Source: Ceraceosorus guamensis
Taxonomy: Eukaryota; Basidiomycota; Exobasidiomycetes; Ceraceosorales; Ceraceosoraceae
DNA: 64,000 bases
Direction: 5' to 3'
Assembly (NCBI RefSeq): GCF_003144195.1
Contig: NW_020290010.1
Span: 186,001-250,000 of the forward strand
This document shows, one piece after another, positions 17,783 to 62,056 of this stretch (the stretch's first letter is position 1; each line of letters starts with the position of its first letter). The notes beneath the pieces are model-generated. The model was not told the DNA's origin. It searched no databases and worked only from the letters and a program-made list of their open reading frames with translations. The translations under genes were made by a program, and so were the position numbers.

Positions 17783-19357
17783 CTAAGCCCAATTGCCGAC
17801 GACGGCCATGCCAGCGGCGCCCACCGCGAGCGAGATGGCGGCAGCGGCGCCTTGAACGGCTGGTGCATCCCTCAGAGGACCAAAGACAAAGTCGGCAATC
17901 ATGAGCTCCATTGCGGTGAAGAGGAGAATGCCAGCGGAGATGGAGTTCAAGATGCCGATGGCCAAGGCAGATGTGCTAGCGGTTTCGGAAAAGGATCCTC
18001 GAATGCCAAGCCCGATTGCCATGCCTGTCGGAGTGGTCAGTGAGTAAGCGATAGCCATGAGGAGCTTGAAAGGAAGTCGAACAAATCGTCCATCCAGCAA
18101 AGCTATGCGTCCGCCCAAGGCCAAGCCTTCGAACATTTGATGAAAAGTCATTGCGATGAGCAGAGTGACGAATGTGTCTCCGCTCGACGCTCCGAGCGAT
18201 ACGCCAATGATGACCGAGTGAAAGATGATGCCCGCTTCTAGAGCTATCACTTCGAACTTGGCCACTTTTGCGTGCGCGCGCGCTGCATCCAAGTCCGAGT
18301 TTGATGCCGATGCAGCTTCATCGTGCGCGTGCGGGCCAGACCGCTTCTTAAAGACATCGTCATCACTAGGCGGTTGATTGAATGGTGCATGATGCTGCTG
18401 CACACGATCTGTACTCGATGCGGCGCCCTTTTGATGAGAAGGCCCTTTTGCGGCGATTTGTTGATGCGAGTCAATCTCTTCAGTCTCATCGAGGTTCTCT
18501 TCTGCCCCAGACATTCCCTTGCTCTTTCCGCTAGGCGGATCTGGGCGCGCCAGCTCTTCGTCTGTCAGAGGTATCGGCATCCTCAATCTGGGTGCGGTGC
18601 AGCACAATCCTCCATCTAGCGTTCCAGGAGGTACAGCTGCGCCATTCATCGCCGCTGCTTTTCGTCTGAGACCTCGAAGCAGAAAGAAATCCAGGACAAA
18701 GATGAGATAGAGAGATCCCATAGCTATTGCTGGCGAAGTAGGCTCAAAGGAGAGCTCTCTGGAGAAGCGGACGAGGGCTGCGTTGGTTGAAGACTTCGCA
18801 AGCGATTGCAGAATGAGCTGTGCTACTCACGGGAAACAAGGGCTTTGAAAGCTTTCGAAAGCTTCGTAGAGCAAGTGTATGAATGCTGTGCTGAGAATGA
18901 CTCCCGTGCCAATGTGTCTTAACGCAAAGAAGCACATATCTGCAAGGTCCATCTTTGCCCCATTGCGCTCATCTGCCCGGTCCGCGGTACTGGACACACC
19001 CTTGCGCGTTTGCGATCTGCGTTTGATGAGGTACAACTGGCGCGCTCTAGAAGCCAGAGGAATCAGCGTGCCCAGCAGAGAAGCGATCAGGATGACAAAG
19101 ATGCCTCCGATTGCCAAAGACAGCGAGGTCTGACCTGTCGATCCATCGCTGTTTCCCGACGAGGCGGTAAGACTGCACGCATCTGCTTCGCCAGAAGTTC
19201 CCACGTCGGACGCTTGACGAGCCTGAATAGCCAATTGCAATGCTCGCCGAGAGAGTCGACGCGCTGTGGACGCCGGTACTGCCTGGGCGAGCAAGACCAG
19301 AAGGACAGGATAGAGCATCGACTTCATGCTTGAGACTGCGTTGCGGAAAGAAGGCAT
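17783..19357 (-). CDS. ZIP-family zinc/iron transporter
   Basis: Imports Zn2+ (or Fe2+) across a membrane, as yeast Zrt1/Zrt2 do at the plasma membrane. Two exons (19357-18831, 18758-17783) give 500 residues. A signal-like hydrophobic start (SMLYPVLLVLLAQAVPAS) is followed by three membrane helices, a long cytosolic loop and five more helices. The loop holds scattered His (HQQ, HQK, HHAPF, PHAHDE), as expected for a metal-sensing loop. The metal-binding helices are clear: EAGIIFHSVIIGVSLG and FHQMFEGLALGG, the two signature helices of the family. The single intron has a GTGAGT donor. Metal specificity cannot be read from the sequence. Confidence 0.93.
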
Positions 19358-20767
19358 GCTGCATACGAGGTTGATGATCGTGGCTCAAAGATGGTCAGGA
19401 GATTTGCTAAACCGAGCAACCAACGCAGATGCTTCCAGCTAGGAGGGCCCTTGAAGCTTGGAGGGACCGAGTAGCAGTGCTAGGCACTCATATAGATCAA
19501 ATGACCACCAGAACGTCGGGCACGAGTACGAGGTGATAGCGGTGTCAAGAGTGGCCTGATCAGGGTTCGGTGTGCCTCCTACAAAAAGTGAATCGAGCAT
19601 AGGCCGTCAAGTAGCTGCGTGTATGCACTTGGCACCAAGTCCTTCGTCCGACTTGCAGGGCACATCAAGATGAAGTGCATGGCTTACTTGACTGCGCTCA
19701 GGAGACGTTGCGCATGTCGACTATCCGCGGCTGTGGCTGGCCAAGCTCCGTTCCCACGTCCGATCAAGTGAGCAGTGCCTCCTATACTTTGAGCAGAAAG
19801 GTCTGGCTGTGGACAGACGAGCTGCCCAAAGAGGCCCGAGATTCGTTGATTTCCTGCATCCTCTCCTCTGGTCTCTCGAGAGAAACACCTGCGATCGCAG
19901 CAGTACCACTACTGTGTACCATGCAGCCGTCAGTATTGCCAAACGCCGCACCGCCGATGCGGTACTCTCTCAGCACGAGAGCTGCACTCTACCATATGAA
20001 CCCGCGTTCCTGCTGACGCCTTGAAGACTTCAGCTGGACCTGCCAGGCACATCATCCCGGTCTCCTCCGATCGTACGATTCGTCGACGCAGATTGGGCGA
20101 TCAGGAATTCAAGGTGAGCCCGAATGCCTCAAAGTCCTGATGATCGGTCGATCGTGAGTGTACCCGCGAGCGTGTGTGTGGCTGCTTGCAGAAAGTGCAT
20201 CGCATGCGGGGGTCCTGAGAAATTGAAGGCTTGGCTTTTGCTTGGCATCCTGCCAGCAGCTCTCTGCGCGTCTCACGTGAGGCGCTCTGAGACGCCCGGA
20301 GAATCAAATCCAGCAGAATAATCGTGAATATTAATCAAACATCATGAATGCATCTGCCTGCAGTATCTGTAAGCGGTACCTTTGACCGTGATTGAGGTCT
20401 CCACGCTTAAGCCTGCGTAAATGCATCAACTTTACCACTTCATCATTCAATGGTCATTGGGGAATCATGGTCGGACTCGAGAGCAGGAAGTCATCGGAGG
20501 TGGCAGGTTCGGTTGAGCTCGGAGCTCGGGCGCGCAAGACTGGACAGGCTCAAACAAGAACCCGAAATGCTCTATCAACGCCGCCAAGCAAACGGATTGG
20601 ACAGATTGTGAAGGAGGCTGACAGCGCAAAACGTATTTGGCATGGACAGAGGCGAGCGAGGATCATAGCAGGCCATGATTGCATGGAGATTAATGACTTT
20701 GGTTGAAGTACTAGTCAGGCATCACGTACAGCCCGAATATCGGAAGGGTGCGGCGGTGACACCTCGA
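19358..20767. other. Intergenic region
   Basis: This 1.4 kb lies between the start of the ZIP gene and the end of the next minus-strand gene. No coding region is supported; the open frames at 19675-20016 and 20392-20706 lack recognisable features. One motif copy, AATCGTGAA, lies at 20320-20328 in an A/T-rich patch. Confidence 0.55.
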
Positions 20768-21546
20768 TTAGTTTGAGTCGATGACGGCCTCTGCCTCGGC
20801 CCATCCGACCGATTTGGCCACCTTCACGTAAGCGACGTTTGACAGCAGAGCGAAGGTATTTTAGTATGAGAAGCACGGTATGCTGCGCATAGATGCTGCC
20901 ATTCGAGAACACTCACCTCGTCGGTGACGTCGTGAGGCCCGATTGGGATTCTGGCAGGGTGAAGGAAGAAAACGCGCCCAATTGTCGGTAATAGATCACC
21001 ATCAACCAGATCGCCAGGCTTCGTCAAGGGCAAGAAGCAATTCGAACCCCTCGCTGTCGCCGAGTCGAGAGTTTCAAGGATCCGAACTTACCTGATAGGA
21101 GGCAGGTCGAGGACGTATTGACACGAAACCCTAACCATTTTCTTGCCCCAACGTTTCTTGATGACGTAGTTCTCAAATAGGATGGTATCTCCTATATCTG
21201 CGACTTTACGTGTACAAGCTTTGCCAAACTTTATTTTGGCTTGAAGCAGCCAGAAGGGATCATCGTCGGTTGCATCGGGAACGACGTAGCCTGCTTGTGC
21301 GTGGCATGAATCAGCACAAGTTCGACAATGTAGTCCGGAATCCATTACTAGACTTTACCGTTGTCAAGAAGCTATCACACAATACTCACGATGAGCTGTG
21401 CCAGGGTAGCTTAAGCCAGATCGAGAATCATCGGATCCCGACCCCGCGCTGGTCTCTGGCTGTGTCGCCTCGACAGCTATTACCTTTTGCGTCGCAAGGG
21501 TAAACAAGGCCATCAAGGCAGCAAGGAGAAGCGATGAGTACCGCAT
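20768..21546 (-). CDS. Small secreted protein, paralog A of a divergent pair
   Basis: Predicted 147-residue secreted protein of a family I do not recognise. Exons: 21546-21390, 21290-21092, 20950-20917 and 20821-20768. It starts with a signal peptide (MRYSSLLLAALMALFTLA). The mature part carries DPFWLLQAK, FGKACTRKVAD, ENYVIKK, VSCQYVLD and ends VAKSVGW plus a short tail. Each of these has a counterpart in the gene at 22996-23750, and intron positions and phases match, which also fixes the tiny 34-nt third exon. Two Cys (KAC, VSC) are shared by both and may pair. The second exon has adjacent acceptors (AAG, CAG five bases apart in frame), so a two-residue splice variant is possible. The role is unknown; size and secretion allow an effector or surface function, but that is speculation. 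Confidence 0.8.
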
Positions 21547-22995
21547 AGTGCAGACGTAGGCGCAAGAAGTGTCAAGGGGGCAAGATGCAGCTCTCGCCGA
21601 CAAGTAGGGGAGGGAGAGGCAGAAGCGAAGCTTCAGCGGGATGGAGACTGTACTGGACGCTAGGGTGGTGGGTTGGCGAAGAGCGTCGAAGCGCAAACAC
21701 GAAAAGATGCGACACGCACCCTACGGACAAGAAACAAAAACAGTACCAGAGATTTCACTTTTGGAGCTTTGCGCAGAGCAAATGGCCGGTGTACTTGCAC
21801 GCCCCGCCCGCTCTCCAGACAGAATGGACACAGGAATTCCGCGCTTGACTACCCCCAACGGCTCGGATGTCGTCGAGGAAAGCTGTTTTGCGCCAGAAGT
21901 TTGGTCCTACAGGTGCTGGAGCTCACTCGGAAAGGTTCTTTGTTAGATCACGGTCAAGCGGCAGCGGGCCTTGTCCAGCGTCGACAAAGCTCCCGGGTTC
22001 CGTGACGCGGCGGTCCGGGATCGCCTTCATTATGCAGAATTCGCTGCTCGACCGTACAGCACACTAAGCACGCGGTATCAGTTCATGAAGACTCGACTGT
22101 CGCTAATTGTATGGCACGAAGGTGTAGCGCGTGCTCCGAAGCAGACTGTCCAAAAGTCCAAGTCGGCGGGCCGGCGCACGGCTGAGTACAAATGCAGTCC
22201 GCGGATCAGCTCATTCACCTGCGATCGATCGTATGCCCTTGAACGCGTATCATGATGGTCCTTCAAAATCCAGGCACACTATGAAGGCTCAGGAATGGCG
22301 CCCTTGAAGTGTACGAGAGGGCACGCATACGCATTGCGACGCTGTGGGCCATTCACGGCTCCCCTCCGCCGTCGGTACCTGTCTAGCAAGTGTCCATGGC
22401 AATCGCGGCGGCGATGGGCGCATGGCATCCTTGCTTGCCCAACGTACCGTACGTTCTGCCGAAGAGCCCAACAGCACGTCTGCCACCGAGACGTTCAGAG
22501 CAGGATGGTGAATGATGACGCTGGACGCCAAAGCGGGTATATATAGCAGCTGCCCCTGATACCGGGACGCCAAAGAGACCGACACAAAAGTGAGTCATGT
22601 GGCGGAATTACCTTCCAATCGAGAGCCAAATGAGCATTCGTGCGGCGGGCACGTATCATGGATTGGATCAGTGGCTGTGTGGAAAAGCGCTATCACAAAC
22701 ATTTGTGCACACATCATCGCACGTCTGCGCAACATCTCCAGTGTGACTTTTGGCTTCGCGGAGCATAACGCTATGTGCAGCTGCTGCTGTGTGCTGCCGG
22801 TCAGGCTATTCGAAGAACGTCGGACGGACAAGCATGCGTCTGTAAGCAGAGGGGAGAGCTCCATCAGCGCTATTTAAACCCCTCGCGAATCACCCGCGAA
22901 TTCTCGACTGCCTCAATACGTCCATCTGCCTCCCTCATTTACACCCATCCACACACTCATACGCTCACAACCTCCCCTCCCACTCCAAATTCAAT
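21547..22995. other. Shared divergent promoter region of the secreted paralogs
   Basis: This 1.45 kb separates the start codons of two head-to-head paralogs. It contains a TATATATA stretch near 22540 and the TATTTAAA box at 22871-22878, then a pyrimidine-rich leader before 22996. I see no gene in it. If the pair is co-regulated, the control sites should be here. Confidence 0.6.
22871..22878 (+). promoter_or_regulatory. TATA-like box for secreted paralog B
   Basis: TATTTAAA lies 118 bp upstream of the start codon at 22996 and is followed by a C/T-rich stretch typical of fungal transcription start regions. It is assigned by position and sequence only. Confidence 0.5.
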
Positions 22996-23750
22996 ATGCA
23001 TCTATCTGTTCTTTTCGGCTTGGTCTTCAGCGCAATCGCTCTCACTTTGGTGGTTGCTGCGCCGCTCGAGGATCAGCCCCAGCTAGTCCACAAAGTAAGC
23101 GACGGTCCAAAGTGTGAGTATCAGACGCTTCTGATCGGCGCGCTCAAACTGCGTTAGCTGCTTTCCTCTGAGCTGAGCTCTTCAATCACACAATCACGAA
23201 TATCTCCTTTCGGCTCCCTTCCCATTGCAATCTGACGTCAAAAGTGTTCAGAGTCTCCAAGGCTCAATCGGACCTGGACGATTTCTGGCTGGAACAGTCC
23301 AAGCAAGATTTCGGCGTGGCCTGCGCCCAAAAGGTCCGCGATACATCCGACGGACTCTTGACGTATGAAAACTACGTCATCCTTCCGCCCGCATCCAACG
23401 TCAACGTTCATGGAGAAAAGCTAGATGAGCAAAAGTTTGTGATCCAGGCATCTTGCAAATACACGCTCGATGTGTCGGGGACCAGGTAGGTGTTTGCCGG
23501 TCCTCTTTTCCTGACAAGACCTTGCAGGGGTGCCTCGTGGCTGACAGGCTTGTGCTGCGCCTTGTCATATCTTCCTAGACTTCCATGGACTTCAACTGAG
23601 ATCACGGATGCGGTGGGTAGTCGAGGAACGCAACAAGCCTTTATCTCGTGCCTCCAACTCGTGAGCTGACCACTTCAACTTTCATTGCCGCTGCGACAGG
23701 TCGCCAAGTCTCTGCATTGGGACTCCCTGCCCACCCAGGTGCCAGCTTGA
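22996..23750 (+). CDS. Small secreted protein, paralog B of a divergent pair
   Basis: Predicted 147 residues, the same length as its neighbour. Exons: 22996-23113, 23245-23485, 23579-23612 and 23700-23750. The signal peptide is clear (MHLSVLFGLVFSAIALTLVVAAP). Conserved positions shared with the minus-strand paralog are DDFWLEQSK, FGVACAQKV, ENYVI, ASCKYTLD, a TD pair at the end of the 34-nt exon 3, and VAKS with a following Trp in exon 4. Paralog B has about ten extra residues after ENYVI (PPASNVNVHG region). Both Cys are kept. Because the exon phases agree (1, 2, 0) and exon 3 is 34 nt in both, the two models support each other. Function unknown. Confidence 0.82.
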
Positions 23751-24032
23751 GGTGACAGTGGGCATGAACAAGCGGCACAAGAGTTGCGACGCCATGCTCC
23801 TACTGTTGTCCATTGCGCTATCCTGATCTCAGAATGCACTACCTAAGACTGTCAAATCGTACCTGCACTGAACGCGTTGAACCGCTAAGCGTGTCCAATG
23901 CTATGAATCGTCGTTGTCCATTCATTTCTGAAATGGGGAAGCTTCTATGATGTGCGGTATCATGTCGTTTTGTAGGGAGCAAGGTATTATCGCTAGCTCT
24001 GCACAATCTTCTATATCTCGCTATCACAAGCC

Positions 24033-26883
24033 TCATTGCGCATCTTCACCATGCAGCTCATCCTTGATCGCCTTGATGGCCCTCTCGCTCGCTTCCTGCT
24101 CCTTCAACCTCTGGCTAGCCTGCGAATCCACTCCAGAAGCGGCTCTGAGTGCCGAAGATCTGTCTCCTCCGACTGCAAAAGCTCGAGTGAAGCTAAAAAC
24201 TTTACGTCGACGGGCGTTGAAGTCTGACAGGCTGCCAAACATCGCACCGACCAAAGCGAAAGGCTGTTAAAAGGCAGACTCAAGGTCTCAAGGCACGTCA
24301 GTACTCACGCTTCCATTATCGATAATCCTCGGTAGAAGTACTTTGAGAAACAAAGGAGGCACGAGTCAGCGATCGCAGGCTCAGCTCCTGCTCGAGGCAC
24401 AAGCTTCAGCTCACAAAGTAGTTCCACCAAGCCCCGATCCAATCCCTGATCAAGCCGAGGCTCAAGCCCTGCTCCTTTCTTCTCCTTCTCAGATTCTCCC
24501 TATCATCATCCCAGACTGCCAAGGCGCAGTACCTAGCAGCAATAATGAAGGGTCTGGCAGCACCGTGCGTCGTGTGTAAATTGTAGTCGAGTGAACGCGT
24601 GAGGTCGTTGATCTTCAGAACCATGAGCATCCGTCTAGGGACACGCCGAAGCATATCCAGGATGGAGACGAACAGGCCCTCTTTCGCCATGACGGTCTGC
24701 GACAAACAACAAACGTACATGAGCGGCAGCAGCATAGAAATTCTTGCAGGTCTCAGAACCTACTCACGTCGCGAATGTGCTCCTGCTCTTCGTCGCTCAC
24801 ATCATTTCCGGAGGTCGCGGGCTGATCGAGCAGACTACTGGCTCTCGGTCTGCCCTTGACTCCATGAGGGTTGCTGGGGTCGCTACCCTCCAATCCACTC
24901 TTTCCCGTGATGGCGCTCTCCAAAATAGGATAGAGCTCATCGGGGATATTCGCAATGAGAGAAGCCAGCCTTCGACGCTCTTTTTGCACTCTGGGGGTGC
25001 TAGGAGACAAGAGCGCGAGCCAGAAACGTGCATAGTCCGTGCGCAATTTTTTGTCGATGTCAAATGTAAGACCAAAGTCCAACAGAACGAGCTCGAAGTT
25101 GTAAGGGCTTCTGCTTCCAGGCAGCGCCGGCCGGATCAGCACATTGCCAGCATGAGGCTGCGGGGCACAATTGCTATCGCATCTCAGTCTTGCTTCTCAG
25201 AGCGTCTCTTCTTCACCCGAGCGCATTCGAACTCACGTCTCCGTGGAAAAATCCGTGCATGTACAGCATCTGAGCAAAGACCCTGCTTAATTCCTGACTG
25301 ACGCGATTTCTGTCGATTCCGTGCTTCTGAAGATAATTCAGGTCGTCGGGCCTCCTGCCGTCGATGTACTCCATGACCATGACCCTCTTTGACACATGCT
25401 CCACTTTGGGAATGTAGATGGCCGTCTTTTTGTAGTGGGCAAAGTCCGACACCATCTTGCGGGAAGATTCTGCTTCGTGGCGGAAGTCCAATTCCAGAGG
25501 TAGATTCTAAGTCGGCCACGCAGTGCAGGCAGGTAAGCTCCCAGCGCGCGCCCTGCTGATCTACAGCAAGCAAGGCTGCTCACCTCATTCATCTCCTCGG
25601 CCAGCCAGGTGAACTCGAATTGAGGGAATATGCGCTTGACCCACTTCACGAGGACATTCACAGTCTTGACATCGATGATGCTGAATCTCTCCACCTCGGG
25701 ATGCATGAGCTTCACAGCTTTCCACTGTCCCGTTTTCCTATCCTTTGCTCGATGTACCTGGGCCAGACTCGCGACGCCCAAAGGGTTTGCGTCAAATTCG
25801 GAGAACATTGCCTCAAATGTGGATCCTGTTTCTTGCCTGAACATGGCTTCCAAGGCTGGCAGCGGACTAGGTTCATTGGCATCTTGCAAAGGCCGAAGCG
25901 TCTGAGTATACTGCAAGGGTAGCAATGCGATCGAAGACATGTGTTGACCCAACTTGATGTACAATCCTCCATTCTCTTGCAGGGCTGCCAGCAATCTATG
26001 CGCAGAGCGCAGGTGACAATCTTCCAATTCGGCTTGCTCTGCCTCCTTCGACTCGTACTTGGCGTTGAGCGTCTTTCGGTAGTCCCACACGCACAGGGCC
26101 ACTGCAGTGGCAATCACTGTGCATCTGTGCGAGCGCGGGCGTAGAAAGGAATGAAAGCAGCCTTGCGAGATTAGCGCATGCTCGGAACAGTCGTGATTGG
26201 GATGCTTAGTATAGGGGCTGCTCTCACCTCTTGACCGCAATGACGGTATAATTTCCGGCACCTTTGCCAGCTTCTGCCTCTTTGACCCTCTTCTCCATCT
26301 CCTCCACCGAGATGTCGATGCCCTTGAGGGCAGGATGTTGTCGCTGACCCTGCGCTTCATCCGCATACACGCTCGAGTAAGTGAACCAAGCAGCCGCAGC
26401 TGCTCCCAACAACAAAGCAGCAACTACAGCCCCTTTTCGGCTCGTCTCTCTGAACTTAGCATGCGCTTGCTGCGTTTCGGCTGGATTGGGAACTGCAGGC
26501 TTGTCGAACACGATGGGATCGGGCTGAGCTGCGGGCGGAGGATAAGTCTTTCGGAAAGGTCTGCTATCCGATCCTTTTCCATGATGCTCGGATGCTGAGC
26601 TCGACGCATCGCTTCGAGCAGAAGAGGAAGAGGCAGCCGAGGTGCTTTTAGACTTGTTTCGAGGCTGCGAAGGAGGTTTCCAAGAATAAGTGGGAAATGC
26701 GGTGGATGTGGATGAGGAGGCATGCCTGGATGGCAGTGCGGATCTCAGCCCTGCACAAGCTGCGCAAGAGCTTGTCGGCGCCGCAGTCGTCCCCGAGCTT
26801 TGAAGACGAGCTCTTGCCCAGACGGGTCTGCTGGTGCTCGCTGCCTGCCGAAGCAGAGCTGCGCCCGACGAGCTTGCTAGCAT
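24033..26883 (-). CDS. MCP2: Mitochondrial ABC1/UbiB atypical kinase (MCP2/CQD2, ADCK1 type)
   Basis: Members of this family are atypical kinases or ATPases of the mitochondrial inner membrane linked to coenzyme Q and lipid balance. Seven exons (26883-26228, 26124-25584, 25506-25237, 25157-24768, 24696-24415, 24340-24309, 24231-24033) give 789 residues. The N-terminus is Ser/Arg-rich like a presequence, with a membrane helix near residue 155 (GAVVAALLLGAAAAAWF). Family marks are the KxGQ loop YIKLGQHMSS, GVASLAQVHRA, NLPLELDF, the catalytic HGDPHAGNVL (split by an intron) and LLDFGLTFDID. NLPLELDF and the spacing match ADCK1/Mcp2 rather than Coq8. The last splice uses an acceptor at 24232-24233, chosen because the nearer CAG would change frame. 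Confidence 0.92.
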
Positions 26884-38393: not shown

Positions 38394-41300
38394 TCAGGAC
38401 TCGGCGATGTACGAGACTCTTTCGAAGGAGGAGGAGGTAAAAGCGGAAGGGGAGGGGAAGGTTAGAAATTTGCCCAGTCGAAACGTCGCGGGAGCGAACA
38501 CTGCTTCGTGCTCACTGAGTCATCTGGTTCGAGTCCAACGAACGAATCTTGAGCGCCTTGACGTACACGGCCGCGCTGGCCTCGTAGGGATACAGACGAG
38601 CGCGTTGCTGAAAGGCCATGACCGTCTTGACGATGGCCGCAGTGTTGCGAGCTTTGTACACGTTGATCAGTGGTTCAAGCTTGATGGAAGGCGGCAAGGG
38701 AGGCAAATGATCGAAGGCGCGAGGCTCTGCCGGGATCAATTCTGGCTTGAGGCCGGCGGGCGCGCTCTTGCTGAGATCGACCGGTTGCGTGGAAGGAGAT
38801 GATGGGTCGAGAAGCGATGGAAGCGCGTCATTGATGGCCAAGTCGGAGATGAAGAGGCCTGAACCGAGATTCATCCGGTATTTCGATCAGCAACAGCAGT
38901 TTATCACAGCAGCTAGACATGCGTCCGACTCACCGAAGAAAGGTATGCAGCCTTCACTGACGGTTCCCTTTGCCGTCGCTCCGCCCGCAGTAGCGCCGTT
39001 GAGACGAACAGAAGGAGGTCGAGCAGTGCCGACGCTGGCCATGTCGTCTACGTATGCATCCGAAACCATATCGCGCATGGCGTTTCGCATAAGTCTAAAG
39101 TTGCGCACTGGGCTGACAAAGCTCTTGAGATCCCGCAAGACCCTCATCTCCCACATGCCAACCCTGCTCCAGGTTCTCCGCAGTCTTTCAACCCACGGAG
39201 ACTGTAGACCAAAGATGATCTGGGCAAGGGAAGCAAAGTTGGAGTGTTGCCAGCATTTCTGCGGGAGCGTTCGAGAAAGGCATGGTCAGTCTCTACCATA
39301 TCCCTAAGCGCACTATGGAGACCACACTCACAAAGGCAACGCGAATGAACTTAGCTACGACGGCAGCACGCTCGTCGACGTTCTGCGTCAAGACGATCTC
39401 GCTGGCAACCCAATTGCAAGTCAAGTTGAAGCGAGCAACGATTGCAGATACAGCGCTATCGGTATGGACTTTGCGATACGAGATGGCCTCAGCTTTCGCG
39501 CGCACTCGGCCTTGGTAGAAAGTTTCCCAATCGTTGACAACGCCAACCGTCTGCTTCCACCGATCCGAAACGAGCTCTTCCCATGTGACAGCTTTGAGCA
39601 GCTCGGCTTCGATGAGGCACAGCTGCTGCGCCATGCTCTCCGAGCTGTATTGCAAGAGGAAGGAGCGATGGACGGGCGGCGGATTCCACTGCGCGTTTGA
39701 GAGCTGAGGAGTCTGCTGTGTGCTGCCAGGGGACAACGTGTTGCTGAGAGCGCCTCCGTGGCTCTTGCGGCGCTGCGTCGGTTTTCCGCCCAGGCGCGGA
39801 GCAGGCAGCTCGGAGCGCTGAGCTTCAAAGCGACCTTGACGATCAGCGTTGAGGGCAGCAATGAGATCGGGGAGATCCGACACGCTGCTCGCGCGGGGCT
39901 CTGCTTGCGCTTCTGCCATAGAAGCGTGAGACTCGTTTGCCTTCGAGGCGTCTGCTTGGGCCACTGCTTCCGAGCCGGCGATCTGAGAATCGTCCGCAGC
40001 TGGCCCACTTAGTTGCGCACCTGTTGACGTCTGCGCGTTCCGCGCCAGGCTTTCCAGGAAGAGCTTCTCCACTCGCTTCGCCTTGGACCGTTGTTTATCC
40101 TCATCTATGACACCTTCTAAGCGCCGTAAGGCAGCTTCAACGTCTCCAGGCTCCTCGTCGTCGCTATCGGCAAGATCGAGTCTGAAGCCACGGACGAGCT
40201 CGTAGCCGGCCAAGGCTTCATCTGGGTCGAACAGATCGGTCTGCAGCATTCCGATGACCGGATCAGGATGCAGCAACTCGGCCTCCGCTCTTTGACGCTC
40301 CATGAAGCTCATTCGCGTTGACAGAATCGAAGGCGCGTAGTTGCTACCGGGGCCGCCAAACCCGGGGGCGCGCGTCAAAGACGCGTTTCCGACCGACGCG
40401 CGGGCGCCTAAAGGGCTGTAGACTTGGCCTGGGTTGAAGCTAGCAAGGCTTTCCATGCTCATGCGAATCGCTTTTGTCGGCTCCAAATCCTGGACGTGCT
40501 GGGCCATGCGAAGATCCCTGGCACCTGGCAGTCTGCGCAAGGCCCTTCTGACCACTCCATCGTCCTCATCACTCGAGAGGTCGATGTCGTCGATCTGAAC
40601 GATGTTCGGCCGGTCGCTGCTGGTTCGTTGCATGCTAGCGATCGATCTGATGCTTTGCCTGCTGCCAAGGCCTCGGTATCGGCTCGAAAGCATTGAGCTG
40701 CGTGGCTCCTGGGGCGCAGTGGACTTTCGCAAGCTAGGCGTACGAATGACAGTGGAGTCGGACCGAAGAGTAGATGCGCTTGGAGCGTGGTGGACCGGAT
40801 GTTGCCCGCCATCGCTCACTTCGCTGATTGCCGCCTCCCCCAAGGAAGTGCCCGGCATCGCAGAGAGCGCTCCTTGCTCCGCTAGTAATGGATCGTGATC
40901 AGTGCTAGTCAACATGGCCTTCGCGTCGGGCCCTGTCAGAGCGTCGTTTGACCCGGAGTCGCTCGCAATGCCTGCACCCTCGATGCCGAGTCCAGCGCGA
41001 GCGCTGACATTCGGCACGGTCAATTCGCGCTCCGAGGCAGACAAATCCAAGCTTGAGGCAGGAGTGCTTCTCGTCTGCGCGCTCGCACCGCTGAGACTTG
41101 GGGTACCCTCCATCCCAGCACTTTCACCCGCACTATCGCTGCTGATGTTCCCGAGAGCCTCATCTTCCGTCAGCTCGCTGGGCGCGAGCGCCCGCTCTTC
41201 TGCGGTGTGGAGGTGCGACGCCAGCGCATGACGGATGTCGCCTTTTTGATCCTCGTCCCTGAGTCCGAAGAACGAGATGAAATTCTCCAAGCCTCCTCGA

Positions 41301-44300
41301 ATGAAGAGCAAGTCGCCGCTCTCATTTGCCTCGAATTCCAATCCGTCGATGCCATTGGCTTCGGAAGCATTGTTTGGCGCGCCACGCTGCCCAATGACAC
41401 GGCGGAACCTCGAGATGCGCCCGACGGTATTGACAAACACCCTCGAGATAGGATTCTGAGAGGAAGGAAGCACAGGTGGCAGCATTCCAGACTGTGACGT
41501 GCCAGAAGCCGTTGAGCTATAAGGCTGGAGAGGACTGGGAGGCGCTGCTTGTTGGCGCGTAGCAGGCGCCAAGGTATGACGATGGCGCACAAGGCGTGCC
41601 GCACCCCCTCGGCCGTACAGAGCACGAACGCCGTCAGCTTCTTCGACGTTGGCGATATCGGCCGAGGACAGCTCTGGCGCAGCGTCCCTCGAGGGCATGA
41701 GTGACTGCTGAATGGCAAAGGGAGCTTTCTTTGGCGCATCTTCTCCCGAGTCCTCGCTAAAGTTGAGGTCCACCTCTTCTGTTTTGCTTGCTTCGACGTT
41801 CTGTGTTCCTTGAGACGAAGCAGCGAACGCGGCAGACGAGTGACCCGCTTCGGGACTTGGTTCGCTCTGATTACTGTCCGACCGTCCGCTCTCGTGAAGA
41901 AGCAGGCCGCTCATGCCGGCGCTCTGATACTGCTCCTTCAGACTCCTGACGAGCTTCTTCAAGCTGCGTATGATACCAGCATCGGCAGGTCTGGATCGAA
42001 GCTCCTGCTCTGATCCGATTCTGTTCAGCCATTCCGTCAACTGACGCCTGAGCGCGCGATCGGGCAAGAAATCGGCCTCAAAGAAGTTGGACAGCCAATG
42101 CTTCAGAACGACATAAGTGCGAACCCGGACAATGCGCCTTTGCGCTTCGTCGGAAGGTCCTACCGCTTGGGCCATGGCCCACTTGAAGCGCATGATCAAT
42201 AGCGATAGCAAATCGGAGGCCGTCATGAAGCTTCGGAAGGTGAGGAAAAAATCCGTCAACAACCTGCCATCGATCTCCGACGTCAGCTCCGAGACGATAC
42301 GAGTGGACGTGCCCGCGATGAGGAAAGGCTTGGGCTGCGTTGAAGTTGATGACATGAAGGAGCCTGCGCCGCTGGCTGAGCCTGTGCGCTTGGAGCGACT
42401 TCCGCTTCGAGCTCTCCCATGGGCTTGCTGGGTGCCCTGTCCAGCACTGGTCGGCGAAGAGGTAGCAGCGACAGCCGAGCCGCCCTCGCCCGTCACAGCG
42501 CGAGCAGTGCTGTAGCGCTTCGCTGCTGCGTTGGTTCCAGGCTGCGAAGAAGGTGCAGAGCCGTCGTTGCCCGCCGAAGCTTTGGCTTGTCGACCGAAGG
42601 GTGTGTCTCCCAGCTGAGGACTATCCGGAAGAACCCTTCCATCACGACCACAAAGCTGCAGCTGCCCGTCCATATCAGAGGACCGCATCGCCCAGATAGC
42701 AAATCTGGGATCATCTCCACACGTAGCAGAGGCGATCGTGACGCGCGCAGATTCTTTGGTGGGTGCGCCTGAAGGACCCAAGGCGGGATCCTCCGTCGAG
42801 GAAGGGCTACGAGTGTGCACCGGACTCTGATCTTCGCCCGACGACGACAGTGTTGTTGCTAAGCTGGATCGTTTCGAATCTCCGCCGCTGGTGGAAGTTG
42901 TAGGAGAGATGATTGATGCCGCGTCAGTCAAGGCATAATGCTGGAGCACATCAAATATCAAGGTCTCTTCATCCTTGGCGCTGATGGCAGAAAGCGGTAC
43001 CATCCTTTCCGCCTCGTCGTCCTCGTCTCTGTACCCTTCGTCACAAAGAATTTCCTCGCGCTCGCTGATGTCGAGATGCGGCAGGATGGCTGGAGGAAGT
43101 GTCGACAGCAAGATTTTTTCTTCCCCAGCTCGCGCGGTGGCTGCGGAGTCGGCACTTTCGAAGCTCTGGGCCTCCCGAAGCAGCCTCTGGCGCGGGCTAG
43201 CGGGGGAGCGAGAGTCAGACAAGCTTCTCGCGTGCAGGGCAGAGGCGTGATTACCAGAAGCGTCGGGCCCCTGGTCTTGGTCTGAGCTGTAAGGCGACCG
43301 ACCTTGAGCAGCGGCAAACTTGTGCACATCCTTGAAAAGCGGCTCGCCAAAGTTTGTCATCTGAGGTATGGGCGACGTGTCCCAAGAGGTGCCCCTTGTC
43401 ACTGCCGCTTTTGCAGAAGAGGAAGAAGTTGCGCTGCCTCCTCTGGCCATGGGCACAACTGGGTGGCCAAAAGGACTAGCCCCTCGCCAGCTGGATGGAG
43501 GCGCTGCTCTGCGCGACAGGTTGGCAGCAGCGTGGGCTTCCAGACCCGTCCTCAGAGACACGTCTTCGCCCTTTGACTCGTATCTGGACAGAATATGCTG
43601 CTGCTGCTGTTCTTGAGCATGCTGTACTTCTTGTTGCTGTTCTTGTCTGAGTCCCAAGATAGCGCCCAAGACATCACCGCCTTGCAACCTGTCAGCCTCT
43701 GCTGCTGTCAATCTATCGCGCACGTTCAAAGGGGCGCTGAAGGATCGCGAAGATTGATTCATGGCGTGACCTGCTTCTTGAGGCGGAGACAACAATGTGG
43801 AAGGAATCTGAGGCATTGGAGGAGTGTTCCCCGACTTGGCTTGACTGGGGAGAGGAGGCACAACGACCCAGCCAGAAGCAGCGGAGCTAGACCCTGCGGC
43901 GTTCTTCGCTTGTCCAGAAGACGCTCCCATCAAACCCATGCTTCGTAATGTCGGGATGCTCTTGCTGGTCTTGAGAGCCTTGCTCTTGCCTTTACTAGCT
44001 CTACCAGTAGACCCAGCAGCCGAGCCGTTCCCTTTGCTGCCTGCACGTCCTCGTCGAGCTTTGAACGCCGAGTCGCCTGCCGTTCCCGCGCTGAGATCCT
44101 CCACACTGAGACGCGCCATCGTGTCGATGTCATGGGAAGCTGCTAAAGCGACGCTCTCCGAGCTCGAGCGCGGCATAGTCGGAGAGCTGCTATCTAGGCC
44201 CATTGCGTCTGCTTGAGACGCTGGTTCGTTCCTGTACTTGAAACGATACACGGTTCTACCACCTTCAATGCGCTTGGCTGTAATTCTGAAAGGCGTGCCG

Positions 44301-44737
44301 CGGCCGTAGTCGAGTTCGTCAGAGGCGGTAGCGTCGGACGATACGAAGGGAGATGGATGCACAGATGAAGAGGCGGACGATGAGGCTTGAGCAGATGCGA
44401 CAGCAGCAGCAGCTGCTGCTTCCTCCTCCTCATAAGGCCTCAGATATATGCCATACTTGGTAGCCAACAGCTTCACAGCGTTCCAATTGGTTGTCTCGAC
44501 ATCAGGAGCGCTAGATGCATCAGGAAAGCTGGATAATGTAGCTGCAGACGCGCCCGAGCCCGCTGCAGGGATGGATGCTGTCATTGCGGTGCGGGACGAG
44601 GATGTGGGCAACTGGATGTGGTCGCTCTTGCTCGTGTCGGATGATGATGGTGCGGCTTGAGTCGAGACCGCAGCGGCGGCCGAAGGGGCGATGCCCAGAT
44701 TTGAGCGACGACGCGCGGCGGTCGGCAGTTGATTCAT
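38394..44737 (-). CDS. Large Ras guanine-nucleotide exchange factor
   Basis: Activates a Ras-family GTPase by promoting GDP release. Exons: 44737-39332, 39258-38934, 38858-38516 and a small last exon 38418-38394, giving 2032 residues. The first 800 residues are disordered and Ser-rich with Gln and Ala tracts. A RasGEF_N (REM) domain lies at about 810-935 (RLLTDFFLTFRSFM, YVVLKHWLSNFF). A long disordered Ser-rich linker leads to the catalytic CDC25 domain from about 1680 to the end (SMAQQLCLIEAELLKAVTWEEL, FNLTCNWVASEIV, FLRRTW-like region). Without the last intron the frame stops at 38512, seven residues shorter. The donor GTGAGC, CTAAC branch site and pyrimidine tract favour splicing. Target GTPase unknown; Cdc25-, Bud5- and Lte1-like are all possible. 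Confidence 0.92.
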
Positions 44738-45069
44738 CGTGCTGATCTACTGTGCGGTCCTCATTTGCATGTGGAGAAACATATGCAAGATCGGCCGGTG
44801 CCAGTGCGATGTGTCGATGGATGCATGGATGTTTGGCAAGTCGGTCGGTGAGACAAGCAAGCAAGTAGGCGTTTGTAGATCAGGGCAGCAAAGAGCCAAG
44901 CCCTGCCGTGGTAATCCTGAAAAGCCAGGGAGGTCGTGGGTACGTGTATAGATGAGGAGCGAGGCCAAGACCCGTGAGAGCTAGTTCTTGTACAGTCGCG
45001 GACCTTATTCTCGGGGCAGCAGCAGAGCTGCGAGAGCAAGTTTCGGTCAATCGAGGTGCCTGCGCGCTG

Positions 45070-56646: not shown

Positions 56647-59600
56647 ATGGCGACGACAAGTGACTCAGCGAGCCTTCCCCAGGCGAGTGACGAACACTCG
56701 CTTGAAGGACTGCCATCTCAGACGCAAGATGGAAGCGCAACCCCCGATGCTATGGAGCTCGCTCGGGTATCATCAGAAGATGAGCTTATCTCACGGGCGT
56801 GTACAGTGACGGACGACCTGACCAACCCGTCCACCAGAACCTCCTCTGCGTTGCAGCACAGCGGAAGCCCTGCTTGGCGGGATGAAGGTGCCACGGTCGT
56901 GGCAGCACAGACTGGCGCTGGCGATGATGTGGCGAACAGCGCGGAAATGCCATCACCCCTAGAGGAAGAGCCTAGCCAGCAGCTCAGTAGCGAGGATGTG
57001 ATCGAGCTCAATAAGTTCAATGAGGGAAAGGTGCGCATCTAAGACAAGATTTGCGGAGCATCAAAGTTCATTGAGCTTACGACTTTAGCCTCTCTCGCCA
57101 GTCCCGCATCGAGGAGTTCTTGCAAGTAAGTGGCTCGGCGATTGAGCGGTGCGTGCTGTGCTAAGCCTCGACTTCGATGAACTCTCATTCCAGATTTTGG
57201 ACCAGCGACCGAAGCTCGAACCTCTTGCAGATTGCAAAGAAGCGGGCAACAGGCCATCGGATGAGATCTGGCCAGATTTGGATGCGAGGATAGCGGAGAC
57301 GGAAAGCTGGATCGACGAGGTGGAGCGCATAGAGGAGGAGGCTACCGCTTGGAATGCGGCTGATGTTGAGCGCTTAAGGCGCGTCTCTAAAGGTGAGTCG
57401 GCTCACGGATGCCAGCAAGCGTTCTTTGTCTAAGTCAGAGCAGACCAGAGGCTAGTGTCATCAGTGCCCGCCTTCGTGAAACCAAGTGTTGACCCGCGCA
57501 AACCGGTCTCTGGCGGCCTTCCCTTTTCAGAGGCTTCCGAGCGGCACATGTCTCCTCAGGATGCTGATCTGGTGGAGCTGGCTCTTGAAACGCTTGTCGC
57601 CCTCGACAAGCTGCTTCACCTGTGTGGCTTCAGGCGAGATCAGCTGGAGCTGCTCCGGGCTCGCCTCGAATGGGAAAGCCACCGACGGCATTGCTGGGAC
57701 GTCTATCGTACACTTCTTGCGGATGTCGATGAGTTCGTCACAGCGCGAGCAAGATGGACTACGGAGGTCTATCTGCACGGAGTGGGGCGCAATCCCGACT
57801 CCAATGCCAGCTCGTTTGACAGTGACCGATTGAGTCCGGAAACACCGCTCCGATCGCCACTGCGAGAGCGAAGCTCCGCCTCTCGGCAACGAGTCTCTGC
57901 GCGCTTAGATGCAGACAGCCAGAAGCTTGCACATCGCATCAACGCCTTTGCCAAGGCAACTGGAGAATGTGGGGACGTGCTGGACGGAGTCATGGAGTGT
58001 CATAAGCTACCTGACGAGTTCCTAGACGAGCAGGACCGTCTTGAAAACTTGACATCCAGCATGGCCGCAAGATCAGAGCTCCTCGACCAACTCGTGCGCC
58101 AATGGCATCAGTCGGACAGCGCGTACTCGACTCTGCAGACGCTGGCGGCGGACGCTCAGCGCACCACGGCCAAGCTACGAGACGAGGAGCAGGGCGTGCC
58201 CGACAGCCAAAGAGCGCAAGACTTCAGCGGTCAGATCGCAAGCTTCTGCCAACGTCTCGAAACGTTGATAGGCCCTGAACAAGCTAGCTCGGTCAATCTT
58301 GCGACGCCATTAGGCGCACAACCATCTCTCCGAAGGCATCTGAGACCTGTGCAGCCCCAGGAACAGATCTATGCTGACCAAGCTGAGCACACCCGTGCTC
58401 TTGAAGATGCGCTTTCACTTGAAATGCACAAGACAGTCACCGCTGTTCGAGAGGCCAAATCAGCGCTTGAGCGACACTTTCGGGCTCTACGCGCTCTCCA
58501 ACTCATCCAGCGGCTCGTCGCGTCGCTCGACTCTTTGACCAACCAATGTCGCGCCGTAGCAGAGCAGGCAACTTCTGGCTTCGAAGTCGAGTCTCCTTCG
58601 ACAGGCGCTGACACAAGTGCGCAACGGTCGCTCGCAAATCCGGGCTCAAAGCCGGATTTGACATTACTTGAGGCTCTCAAAGCACCTGCGCACGACGTGT
58701 ATCTCAGCCGGCTGCCTGGCCTGAGACCCACCTTAGCCGGTTTGGTCGTCAAGGGCGCCGACTTGCGCAAGGAGATCGACGCTGCCACCCTTGAAGCGGT
58801 CAAAGCAGGGCTTATTCCCTCTGCATTTCGCAGACAGCTCGACAAAAGTCTGGCAAACTTTGAGCAAGTCAAGAGAGATACCGATGCCGCTATTGAAGAC
58901 GGATCTGAGGTCGTCGTGATGCTCAAGCAGCTTCGCACGGCGGATCAGCTCATCGATGCGGTACAAAAAAATGCTGCAGCACTACTTCAAAGAGTCAACG
59001 AGGATTGCATCAAGGTGGCTGAAGCGTACCCGTGGCGATCCGTCAACTCCACCGATGCCCTCAGGGATTTGCGCGCTTCTCTTCAGGTGGCCCGCGAGCG
59101 CATGACCGAGACCCGCCAAGCTCGCGCTGCGTCGGAGCGCGCTCTGCAGCTGGCAGCTGGCCTCGCGAAGGCCAATGAAGCTTCTTCAATTCAGCGGCAT
59201 CTGGTTGATTCGAGCTTCGAGGCAGATCGGCGCGTTTCACAGGCAGAAGCTGCTTTGCGATGGCTCGAAGTCAGTCTGGATCAGCTCGGCGCCGTTGTTG
59301 ACTTACGCTCGACTTTCGAAGAAGCCACAGCTCAAGGACATCAGGTAGCCGAGCTGATTTCGCAGCACGCAGGCCAGAGCGTTGCAACGCTGGCAAGCTC
59401 GGTCGCTACGTTTTCCCAGCAGGCGTTGTCCGTGCCTATGACTGGAGATGCGCCGACAGTTCTCTTCGAGCCCGTCGTATGCGCTGACCCCTCCTTCCGT
59501 TCTGTTGACGAGGAGGTTCGAAAACACGTCAATGGATGGAGCACAGAGCTCGAGACTCTGAAGGAGAGGGTCGAAAGTCTTGCACGACAACGCCAGGTCC

Positions 59601-62056
59601 GTCTGGACGAAGAGCGCTCGTCGCAGCAAAAACGTAACGATGCCCTAGATGCCGTTGCCAATGCATCGACCGCCGTCGATGGACTGGTGAAGCACGTGAA
59701 AGCTGAGCTAGCGAAACATGAGGACGAGATGAAGGCGACTGCAGCTGGACAGGATCCGCGTCAACTTCATCGGCTACATCAGCTGCAAGAGACGGTAGCT
59801 TCTTGGACGCAAGCATCTACGAGCAGACTGCACGTTGCCATTGCCTCACTGACGGACGCTTGTGACGAAGCTGCCCGCCTAGGCTGCACTGAGAGCACTC
59901 TCATGCAGCATCAGCAGCTGACTGCTGATGCTCGCTCACATGTAGCGCAGCTTGAAGCTCAATTTGCAAGTCTCGTGGCAGCAATCAACCAAAGCATCGA
60001 GTCTTGCAGCAGGTTTGCCACAGAGGAGGCGCCCCCGGCAACCGATGGTCTCGAATTTCCAGTCTCTTTAGACCCAAGCTCGGATGACCTCGAAAGCTCG
60101 TCCTCGAGTCGGCTCGAAGACAACGCGCACACGAAGCAGCAGGGCGCTTCTGAAATGCCACAGGTTGAGCTCGCTCTCACCGAATCTGTATCTGACGGCA
60201 CAGGCGCTGAGGTTGATGTCGGCGATGTCAGCATCGATGTATTCGGACCGAAGAGTGTCCTCTCGACCAAATCCTCTGACGCTCCAACAGCACCTCGTGG
60301 CAGAGAGCTGGATACTGTTCAAGACCTGGTCGGACGCCTTGAGGCAGAAGACAAGGTGTTTGTTCAAACTCTCCCGGACGGCTCCCTTCAGAAGCGGCAG
60401 TTACTGCGGCTGCCAACCACATCTGATGACGAGCAAGCCCAAGCGCAGATGCGCCGCCACGAAGAGGAAGTCTACGCAGCCTCATCGAGCCTATCGCCCT
60501 CGAGTTCTCAGAGCACCGAGCTCGCGCACGCTCTTGCAAAACGGCAAGGCCGACTGAGAAGGCACTCCCGCCTCTCGCGTTTCGGCGACCTCGCATCACA
60601 ACTGGAGAACCAGCTCGGAGAGCTAGTAGAGCTTTTGGACAGCCTTGATGCCGATGCAGAAGACGACCACAGATCGCAATCACGACAAGGCGAGCGCAAT
60701 CTGGCCCAGAGCAAGTCCGCCGGCACAGTCGTCGTGAACGAACGGCTAGAGGGAGCACAGACGCTACTTGCTGAGACAAGTATCGCTGCAGATCACGTTC
60801 TTGATGATGTGCGGGTCAAGAACACGTTGGCGAATGTCAACGCCCTACACCGAGAAACTCGGGCGATGGCCGACGAAATACTAGGCGATCCCGAGCTGCG
60901 TCGCCTTCAACGCCAGCGTGAAAGCGTAGTGCCCTCGCCAGCGTTCTCGCTGAGTTCGGCTTCATCGACGGAAGTCTCATCGGCGGAATATGAGGCCTTG
61001 TCTGATGGCAGGGACTCTCCACACGATGCGATGGGGTTCAGACCGCCATCAAGGGAGGCGTCCCCTGCTCCTGTGAGGCGTAAAGCGCAACTCCCTTCAC
61101 AGTCTATCCGTACCTTGTCAGCTGCAGCTGCCACCGATCTGATTTCGGCTTCGCGACGCACGGTCTCGGAAGGTAGCCCGCTAGTCAGGCCAATCAGTCG
61201 AACGTCGAGCGCGGCTCGAAGGAGCGGCATTCCTAGATCACCCCGGAAACGGCTGCCGTCCGAGGTGAATCCCGCGACGACAGAGCAGACGACAGCGGGT
61301 CCGGAAAAACCAGGTGCTCTGGGACATCTCAGATTGCCGAGCGCCCTGTCGACACCGGTGGGCAGCAAGTTGCCAGTGCGCACGCCAAGCCGTGCCACTT
61401 CCATCTCTTCGGTTAAAGTGTCGTCACGCAGAGGTTCGAGACATCCTAATCGGTATCGACCCAACGTCAACAACAAGCTTGACGTTGCCGTGTCTCGAAT
61501 CGTGAATCAGCTGCCTCAGCCGATTCAGATTGCGCACGCTGCTACCGCGCCGGACGCTGCACCACGGGACGCATGGAAAGACGATAGCGGGAGATACTGG
61601 GTAGGATCACGCAATCCAAGACTGTGCTTCTGCCGCTTTCTGCGAAGTCGTATCGTCATGGTTCGGATTGGAGGTGGCTGGCAAGAACTCGGGAGGTGAG
61701 CGTCCCAGATTGTAGCGCAAACGTCTGCAGTCATTGACCTAGCTTGCTTCTTACAATCCGTCCCAGATATATCGAGCACCACTACACCGACTTGATGGCC
61801 GAGGGCGCCACATCTGCAGTCTCGCCTTCTGCCAGCGACTTGCCCTGGATCAAGGGAGGTGATGTGCTGACGGCGACACCTACCCATCTAAAGAGGTCCA
61901 CCATCGCAGAGCTCCACGATTCAGCAAGTGCAGCGAATGTGTCCCCACAAGAGGTCGCCAGCATCGTCCTGACACCTGCTGAAGGCCGTCGCCTACCGTC
62001 GGGGTCGTATGAGCGGGTCAGAACTCCTTCTTCGAGCTCGAGAAGGAGCGTGACAC

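What the first reader, a model, noticed from the sequence alone, without database searches (positions are those of the whole stretch)
20768..23750. Head-to-head pair of secreted paralogs of an unrecognised family
Two divergent genes encode 147-residue proteins with signal peptides. They share FW..Q.K, FG.AC..KV.D, ENYVI, SC.Y.LD, TD and VAKS..W, with two conserved Cys. Intron phases match, and a 34-nt exon is the same length in both. The proteins have diverged far, while the splice pattern and core residues are held, which suggests an old duplication under selection. I know no named family with this pattern. An effector-like role is only a guess.
Basis: partly seen in the sequence, partly recalled or inferred. 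Interest (0 to 1): 0.75.

Follow-up and report, generated by a model that had tools for sequence, protein, structure and literature searches.

The report
Diverged secreted gene pair in Ceraceosorus
Two neighbouring, back-to-back fungal genes are old duplicates that encode small, probably exported proteins seen so far only in the leaf fungus Ceraceosorus; the pair is real, and what it does is unknown.

Summary
Two divergent four-exon genes, minus 20768-21546 and plus 22996-23750, each encode 147 residues with a hydrophobic leader; intron phases are 1, 2, 0 and exon 3 is 34 nt in both. Paralogy is beyond chance: local score 155, at most 64 in 5000 shuffles. The minus product equals Ceraceosorus guamensis IE81DRAFT_365367; the plus product is 90% identical to C. 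bombacis CBOM_06981. Paralogs share only 37%, so the duplication predates the split of these species. No other relative was found among 1958 scored candidates, above cut-off in Pfam, with a PDB profile or elsewhere in the own genome. The core is held (87 of 91 residues identical between orthologs), leader and linker drift (38 of 47). Fold prediction failed (mean pLDDT 38 and 44). Best reading: an orphan secreted family, known only from this genus in the searched data, kept as a diverged pair; secretion, the disulfide and an extracellular binding or effector-like role are inference. Ordinary in kind; a modest orphan-family find.

The parts
21390..21546 (-). minus gene, exon 1 (157 nt, ends in phase 1): start codon, hydrophobic leader, linker
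   Evidence: product identical as printed to P0001
21092..21290 (-). minus gene, exon 2 (199 nt, ends in phase 2): core with FW, FGxAC, ENYVI, SCxYxLD
   Evidence: six-frame match in own genome
20917..20950 (-). minus gene, exon 3 (34 nt, ends in phase 0)
20768..20821 (-). minus gene, exon 4 (54 nt with stop): VAKSxxW and tail
22996..23113 (+). plus gene, exon 1 (118 nt, ends in phase 1): start codon, hydrophobic leader, linker
   Evidence: splice form supported by P0002
23245..23485 (+). plus gene, exon 2 (241 nt, ends in phase 2): core with FW, FGxAC, ENYVI, SCxYxLD
23579..23612 (+). plus gene, exon 3 (34 nt, ends in phase 0)
23700..23750 (+). plus gene, exon 4 (51 nt with stop): VAKSxxW and tail
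21547..22995 (.). 1449-bp stretch between the two start codons, where the divergent promoters must lie (inferred)
   Evidence: length; no inverted repeat pair with both arms inside it in the list

Best explanation
An inverted duplication in an ancestor of the two Ceraceosorus species gave two divergently transcribed genes for small exported proteins. Each product is a leader of about 22-24 residues, a variable linker of about 25-35 residues, and a conserved core of about 80-90 residues that probably holds one disulfide (C66-C110 in plus, C78-C109 in minus). The mature proteins most likely work outside the cell as small stable binding modules at the leaf surface or the plant interface; the copies differ by a 12-residue stretch after ENYVI (present in plus) and in about half of the core residues, and so probably bind different partners. 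Shown: gene models (from sequence and database proteins), homology, shared intron phases, restricted range in the searched databases, a constrained core. Supported indirectly: gene order with the ZIP gene in C. bombacis, by equal contig length. Inferred: inverted duplication as the event, secretion, the disulfide, extracellular binding, effector-like use.
For: Gene anatomy and paralogy score. Database proteins for both genes. Only two relatives with E <= 10 among 1958 candidates, and all five matches of each of three queries in the own genome fall in these two genes. Between orthologs 4 of 91 core residues differ against 9 of 47 in leader and linker. The neighbouring ZIP protein of C. bombacis (97% identical over 93% of the query frame) lies on a contig of the same length, 479409, as CBOM_06981.
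Against: No expression, secretion or phenotype data. C. guamensis is so far known only as an asymptomatic epiphyte (PMC11687029, section 16 read). Two Cys only, fewer than in many apoplastic effectors (recalled). The core is nearly as conserved as the ZIP neighbour (87 of 91, 96%, against 97%), which is not the fast change often expected of effectors. No minus-gene ortholog was seen in C. bombacis. Both structure models are of low confidence and disagree on the strands, so the disulfide has no structural support.
Confidence: 0.5

Rival explanations
1. The pair serves the fungus itself: cell-wall, surface or mating-related secreted proteins without any host target.
For: High core constraint between a pathogen of Bombax and a leaf epiphyte fits a housekeeping surface role as well as an effector.
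Against: No wall-binding domain in the Pfam scans; no hydrophobic tail that would suggest an anchor in the hydropathy profile. Neither excludes the reading.
Confidence: 0.3
2. They are secreted metal-handling proteins that work with the adjacent ZIP transporter, by analogy with the Pra1-Zrt1 pair of Candida albicans (recalled).
For: A ZIP gene lies next to the minus gene, frames 17786-19384, and the ZIP and plus orthologs share a contig length in C. bombacis.
Against: The ZIP frames are on the same strand as the minus gene and about 1.4 kb downstream of it, not divergent; only 4 and 2 His in the precursors; none of the 23 window matches to the zinc-response-like site ACCTTNAAGGT (recalled; up to 2 mismatches; 15.9 expected, 4 of 100 shuffles reach 23) lies between the start codons.
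Confidence: 0.04
3. The fold is a remote, reduced ZP-N domain in a fungus.
For: Sub-threshold match of the plus protein (E 0.024, 15.4 bits) and of its ortholog (E 0.093, 13.5 bits) to PF23344 over residues 65-113, which takes in both Cys.
Against: The cut-off is 24.7 bits; the minus protein is not listed for ZP-N at E <= 10, though HMMER's filters drop most weak matches; both low-confidence models put the first Cys stretch in a helix; no PDB profile match. The genome scan with PF23344 was uninformative, as its control genomes did not ring either.
Confidence: 0.03

Closest known systems
C. guamensis IE81DRAFT_365367 (P0001) and C. bombacis CBOM_06981 (P0002), hypothetical proteins
   Same: P0001 is the minus product itself; P0002 is the ortholog of the plus product (133 of 147 residues identical)
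   Different: The names shown for both records are 'hypothetical protein' with no Pfam domain; nothing there links the two
Clustered secreted effector genes of smut fungi (Ustilago, Sporisorium)
   Same: Small leader-bearing proteins, neighbouring paralogs, narrow range; virulence gene clusters and effector paralogs are mentioned in PMC5811872 (passages seen)
   Different: No such protein among the hits; no expression or virulence evidence; host interaction of C. guamensis unknown
ZP-N domain (PF23344)
   Same: Weak similarity over 49 residues with both Cys
   Different: Below cut-off; the paralog is not listed; low-confidence models show helix where ZP-N (recalled) is all beta

Membership tests
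Fungal candidate effectors (small secreted proteins; operational class, criteria recalled) | N-terminal signal peptide, no membrane span after it | tested here: inconclusive
   Hydropathy peak in the first 20-25 residues only; no dedicated predictor run
Fungal candidate effectors (small secreted proteins; operational class, criteria recalled) | Small size (under 300 residues) | tested here: met
   147 aa each
Fungal candidate effectors (small secreted proteins; operational class, criteria recalled) | Cys-rich (four or more), often but not always required | tested here: not met
   2 Cys each
Fungal candidate effectors (small secreted proteins; operational class, criteria recalled) | Lineage-restricted, no known domain | tested here: met
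   within the limits of a word-seeded search and 81-257 aa candidates
Fungal candidate effectors (small secreted proteins; operational class, criteria recalled) | Expression during host contact and a host phenotype | not testable with these tools
   No expression data
ZP-N domain (PF23344) | Score over the curated cut-off of 24.7 bits | tested here: not met
   15.4 and 13.5 bits for the plus orthologs; minus protein not listed
ZP-N domain (PF23344) | Immunoglobulin-like all-beta fold (recalled) | tested here: inconclusive
   Models too poor: mean pLDDT 37.7 and 44.2
Pra1-type zincophore (recalled) | Gene divergent to a ZIP transporter; His-rich zinc sites | tested here: not met
   ZIP is adjacent but on the same strand as the minus gene; 4 and 2 His

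The most novel reading that the evidence does not exclude
The two genes found a new secreted one-disulfide fold peculiar to Ceraceosorus, and the products are not redundant copies but obligate partners (for example the two halves of a heterodimer), which would explain why they stayed side by side with matching splicing while their sequences moved apart to 37% identity.
Probability: 0.1. Interest if true: 0.55.

Novelty: new member of a known kind. Interest (0 to 1): 0.3.

Why it matters
Orphan secreted families are where new extracellular folds and host-facing proteins of fungi are found. This one is small, well bounded, present (at least the plus gene) in both a tree pathogen and a leaf epiphyte of one genus, and has an internal comparison in its two paralogs, so its role in a plant-associated life can be tested. 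It joins two proteins that the database names only as hypothetical into one family.

Tried and rejected
Distant-family search: Pfam on four inputs, three of them distinct (plus, minus = P0001, P0002), NCBIfam on both paralogs (no match), PDB by sequence with plus, minus and a three-sequence profile. The best PDB sequence matches, TFIIE subunit 1 for plus (E 0.04) and mS33 for minus (E 1.2), were taken as chance, since the profile found nothing at E <= 10. The Pfam matches GxGYxYP_N, ACAS_N (plus) and PRORP (minus), E 0.1 to 0.21, were taken as chance.

Structure: two AlphaFold2 jobs with two-row alignments, one for P0002 and one for P0001, gave mean pLDDT 37.7 and 44.2. They agree on a helix over the FW..FGxAC stretch and a short helix at TDxVAKS but not on the strands. 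No fold search was run, since such models give meaningless matches. The window's own plus protein was not modelled; its ortholog P0002 stood in for it.

Zinc-response-like sites: none between the start codons. Inverted repeats over 20000-24600: 8 pairs of 14-20 nt; the only pair with both arms in coding exons of the two genes is 16 nt in the ENYVI codons. ZP-N in the own genome: no match, but the 14 control genomes did not ring either, so this says nothing.

Literature: 0 papers of the held library hold either locus tag; 0 hold both 'Ceraceosorus bombacis' and 'secretome'; 9 hold 'Ceraceosorus' and 'effector' (listing seen), of which passages of two, PMC5811872 and PMC6450895, were seen, where Ceraceosorus appears once each, in the reference lists. 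A search for ZP-N with agglutinin, yeast and fungal gave 0 papers; the link of yeast agglutinin to ZP-N that I had in mind is recalled only. The C. bombacis genome paper (PMC4607519) is not held, so what it says of the secretome was not seen.

Full report
What is there. The window lies in contig C15 (186001-250000) of a 23.8-Mb genome in 199 contigs. The minus product is identical, as printed, to a deposited protein of Ceraceosorus guamensis, IE81DRAFT_365367, so the organism is most likely that species, of a genus in the Exobasidiomycetes; this is an inference from one exact protein. C. [quoted passage not shown] bombacis is a leaf pathogen of Bombax (PMC11687029; abstract, section 16 and passages seen).

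The genes. The plus gene has exons 22996-23113, 23245-23485, 23579-23612 and 23700-23750; the minus gene has exons 21546-21390, 21290-21092, 20950-20917 and 20821-20768. Each CDS is 444 nt, each product 147 residues, with intron phases 1, 2, 0 and a third exon of 34 nt in both. Introns differ in length (131, 93, 87 against 99, 141, 95 nt), and 1449 bp separate the start codons (all). For intron 1 of the plus gene two other in-frame splice choices exist, giving 144 or 146 residues; the C. bombacis relative reads GPKLFKV across the site and supports the 147-residue form. Intron 1 has the same phase in both genes but lies one codon apart when counted back from the shared FW; introns 2 and 3 coincide.

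More than chance. The mature proteins align with a local score of 155; 5000 shuffles gave a mean of 27.1 and a maximum of 64. In a six-frame search of the own genome each protein finds the other (E 2.0e-5, E 6.2e-6), and all five matches of each of three queries fall in these two genes. That search is seeded and reads exon by exon, so a remote third copy could be missed.

Age and constraint. The plus product and C. bombacis CBOM_06981 differ at 14 of 147 residues: 5 of 22 in the leader, 4 of 25 in the linker, 4 of 91 in the core and 1 of 9 in the tail (the borders are mine). The paralogs are identical at 48 of 134 aligned residues. The duplication is therefore older than the split of the two species. 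Without DNA of C. bombacis no dN/dS could be computed. The neighbouring ZIP protein is 97% identical between the species over 93% of the query frame, and its C. bombacis contig has the same length (479409) as that of CBOM_06981, which points to conserved gene order. The C. guamensis plus product did not appear as an entry of its own; the database is clustered at 90%, P0002 stands for two member sequences, as does the ZIP entry P0003, so the C. guamensis protein may be the second member; this is a guess.

Family. Protein searches with the two- and three-sequence alignments scored 771 and 1958 candidates and kept the same two proteins each time (E <= 1 and E <= 10). Pfam gave nothing over a cut-off, NCBIfam nothing, and the PDB profile search nothing. 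The only Pfam lead seen in two proteins was ZP-N (15.4 and 13.5 bits; cut-off 24.7), in the plus orthologs and not listed for the minus protein; I regard it as chance or at most a lead. The protein search needs shared five-residue words, so far-diverged relatives in other Exobasidiomycetes are not excluded.

Fold. Two AlphaFold2 runs with two rows each failed (mean pLDDT 37.7 for P0002 and 44.2 for P0001). Both place a helix on the FW..FGxAC stretch and a short helix at TDxVAKS. They disagree in between: P0002 has strands 76-85 and 103-112 (ENYVI and SCxY), P0001 has strands 111-115 and 118-122 (after the second Cys). The order of elements and the disulfide are therefore not established.

Surroundings. 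Left of the pair, on the minus strand, are two frames of a ZIP transporter (17786-19384); right of it, also on the minus strand, two frames of an ABC1-type kinase (24753-26423). I scanned 20 frames of the window against Pfam: 19 of the 46 listed frames of at least 180 aa and one shorter one. None matched a mobile-element domain at E <= 0.001; the unscanned frames and small spliced genes could hide more.

How it probably works. The leader sends the protein out of the cell; the linker tolerates change; the core is held, with a probable disulfide between the two conserved Cys for stability outside the cell. The copies differ by a 12-residue stretch after ENYVI, present in plus, and in about half of the core, which suggests different or modified binding partners. 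Whether the partner is a plant molecule, a competitor on the leaf or the fungal wall is not decided by any result here.

Verdict. It is a new orphan family of an ordinary kind, small secreted proteins of a plant-associated fungus, and its interest depends on expression and structure that could not be obtained here.

Noticed in passing
window 17786-19384, minus strand: ZIP-family metal transporter next to the pair; in C. bombacis its ortholog is on a contig of the same length as the plus-gene ortholog.
   Followed up: partly
window 22538-22595, plus strand: A TATATATA stretch followed about 45 bp later by GTGAGT, some 400 bp upstream of the plus start codon; could mark an upstream start with an intron in the 5' UTR (seen).
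   Followed up: no
window 24753-26423, minus strand: Two frames of an ABC1-type kinase gene, apparently split by an intron, right of the pair.
   Followed up: no
window 39296-44746, minus strand: Very long open frame (1817 codons) with RasGEF_N and RasGEF domains.
   Followed up: no
window 57434-61696, plus strand: Long open frame (1421 codons) ending in a GAS2 domain match, a possible cytoskeleton linker.
   Followed up: no
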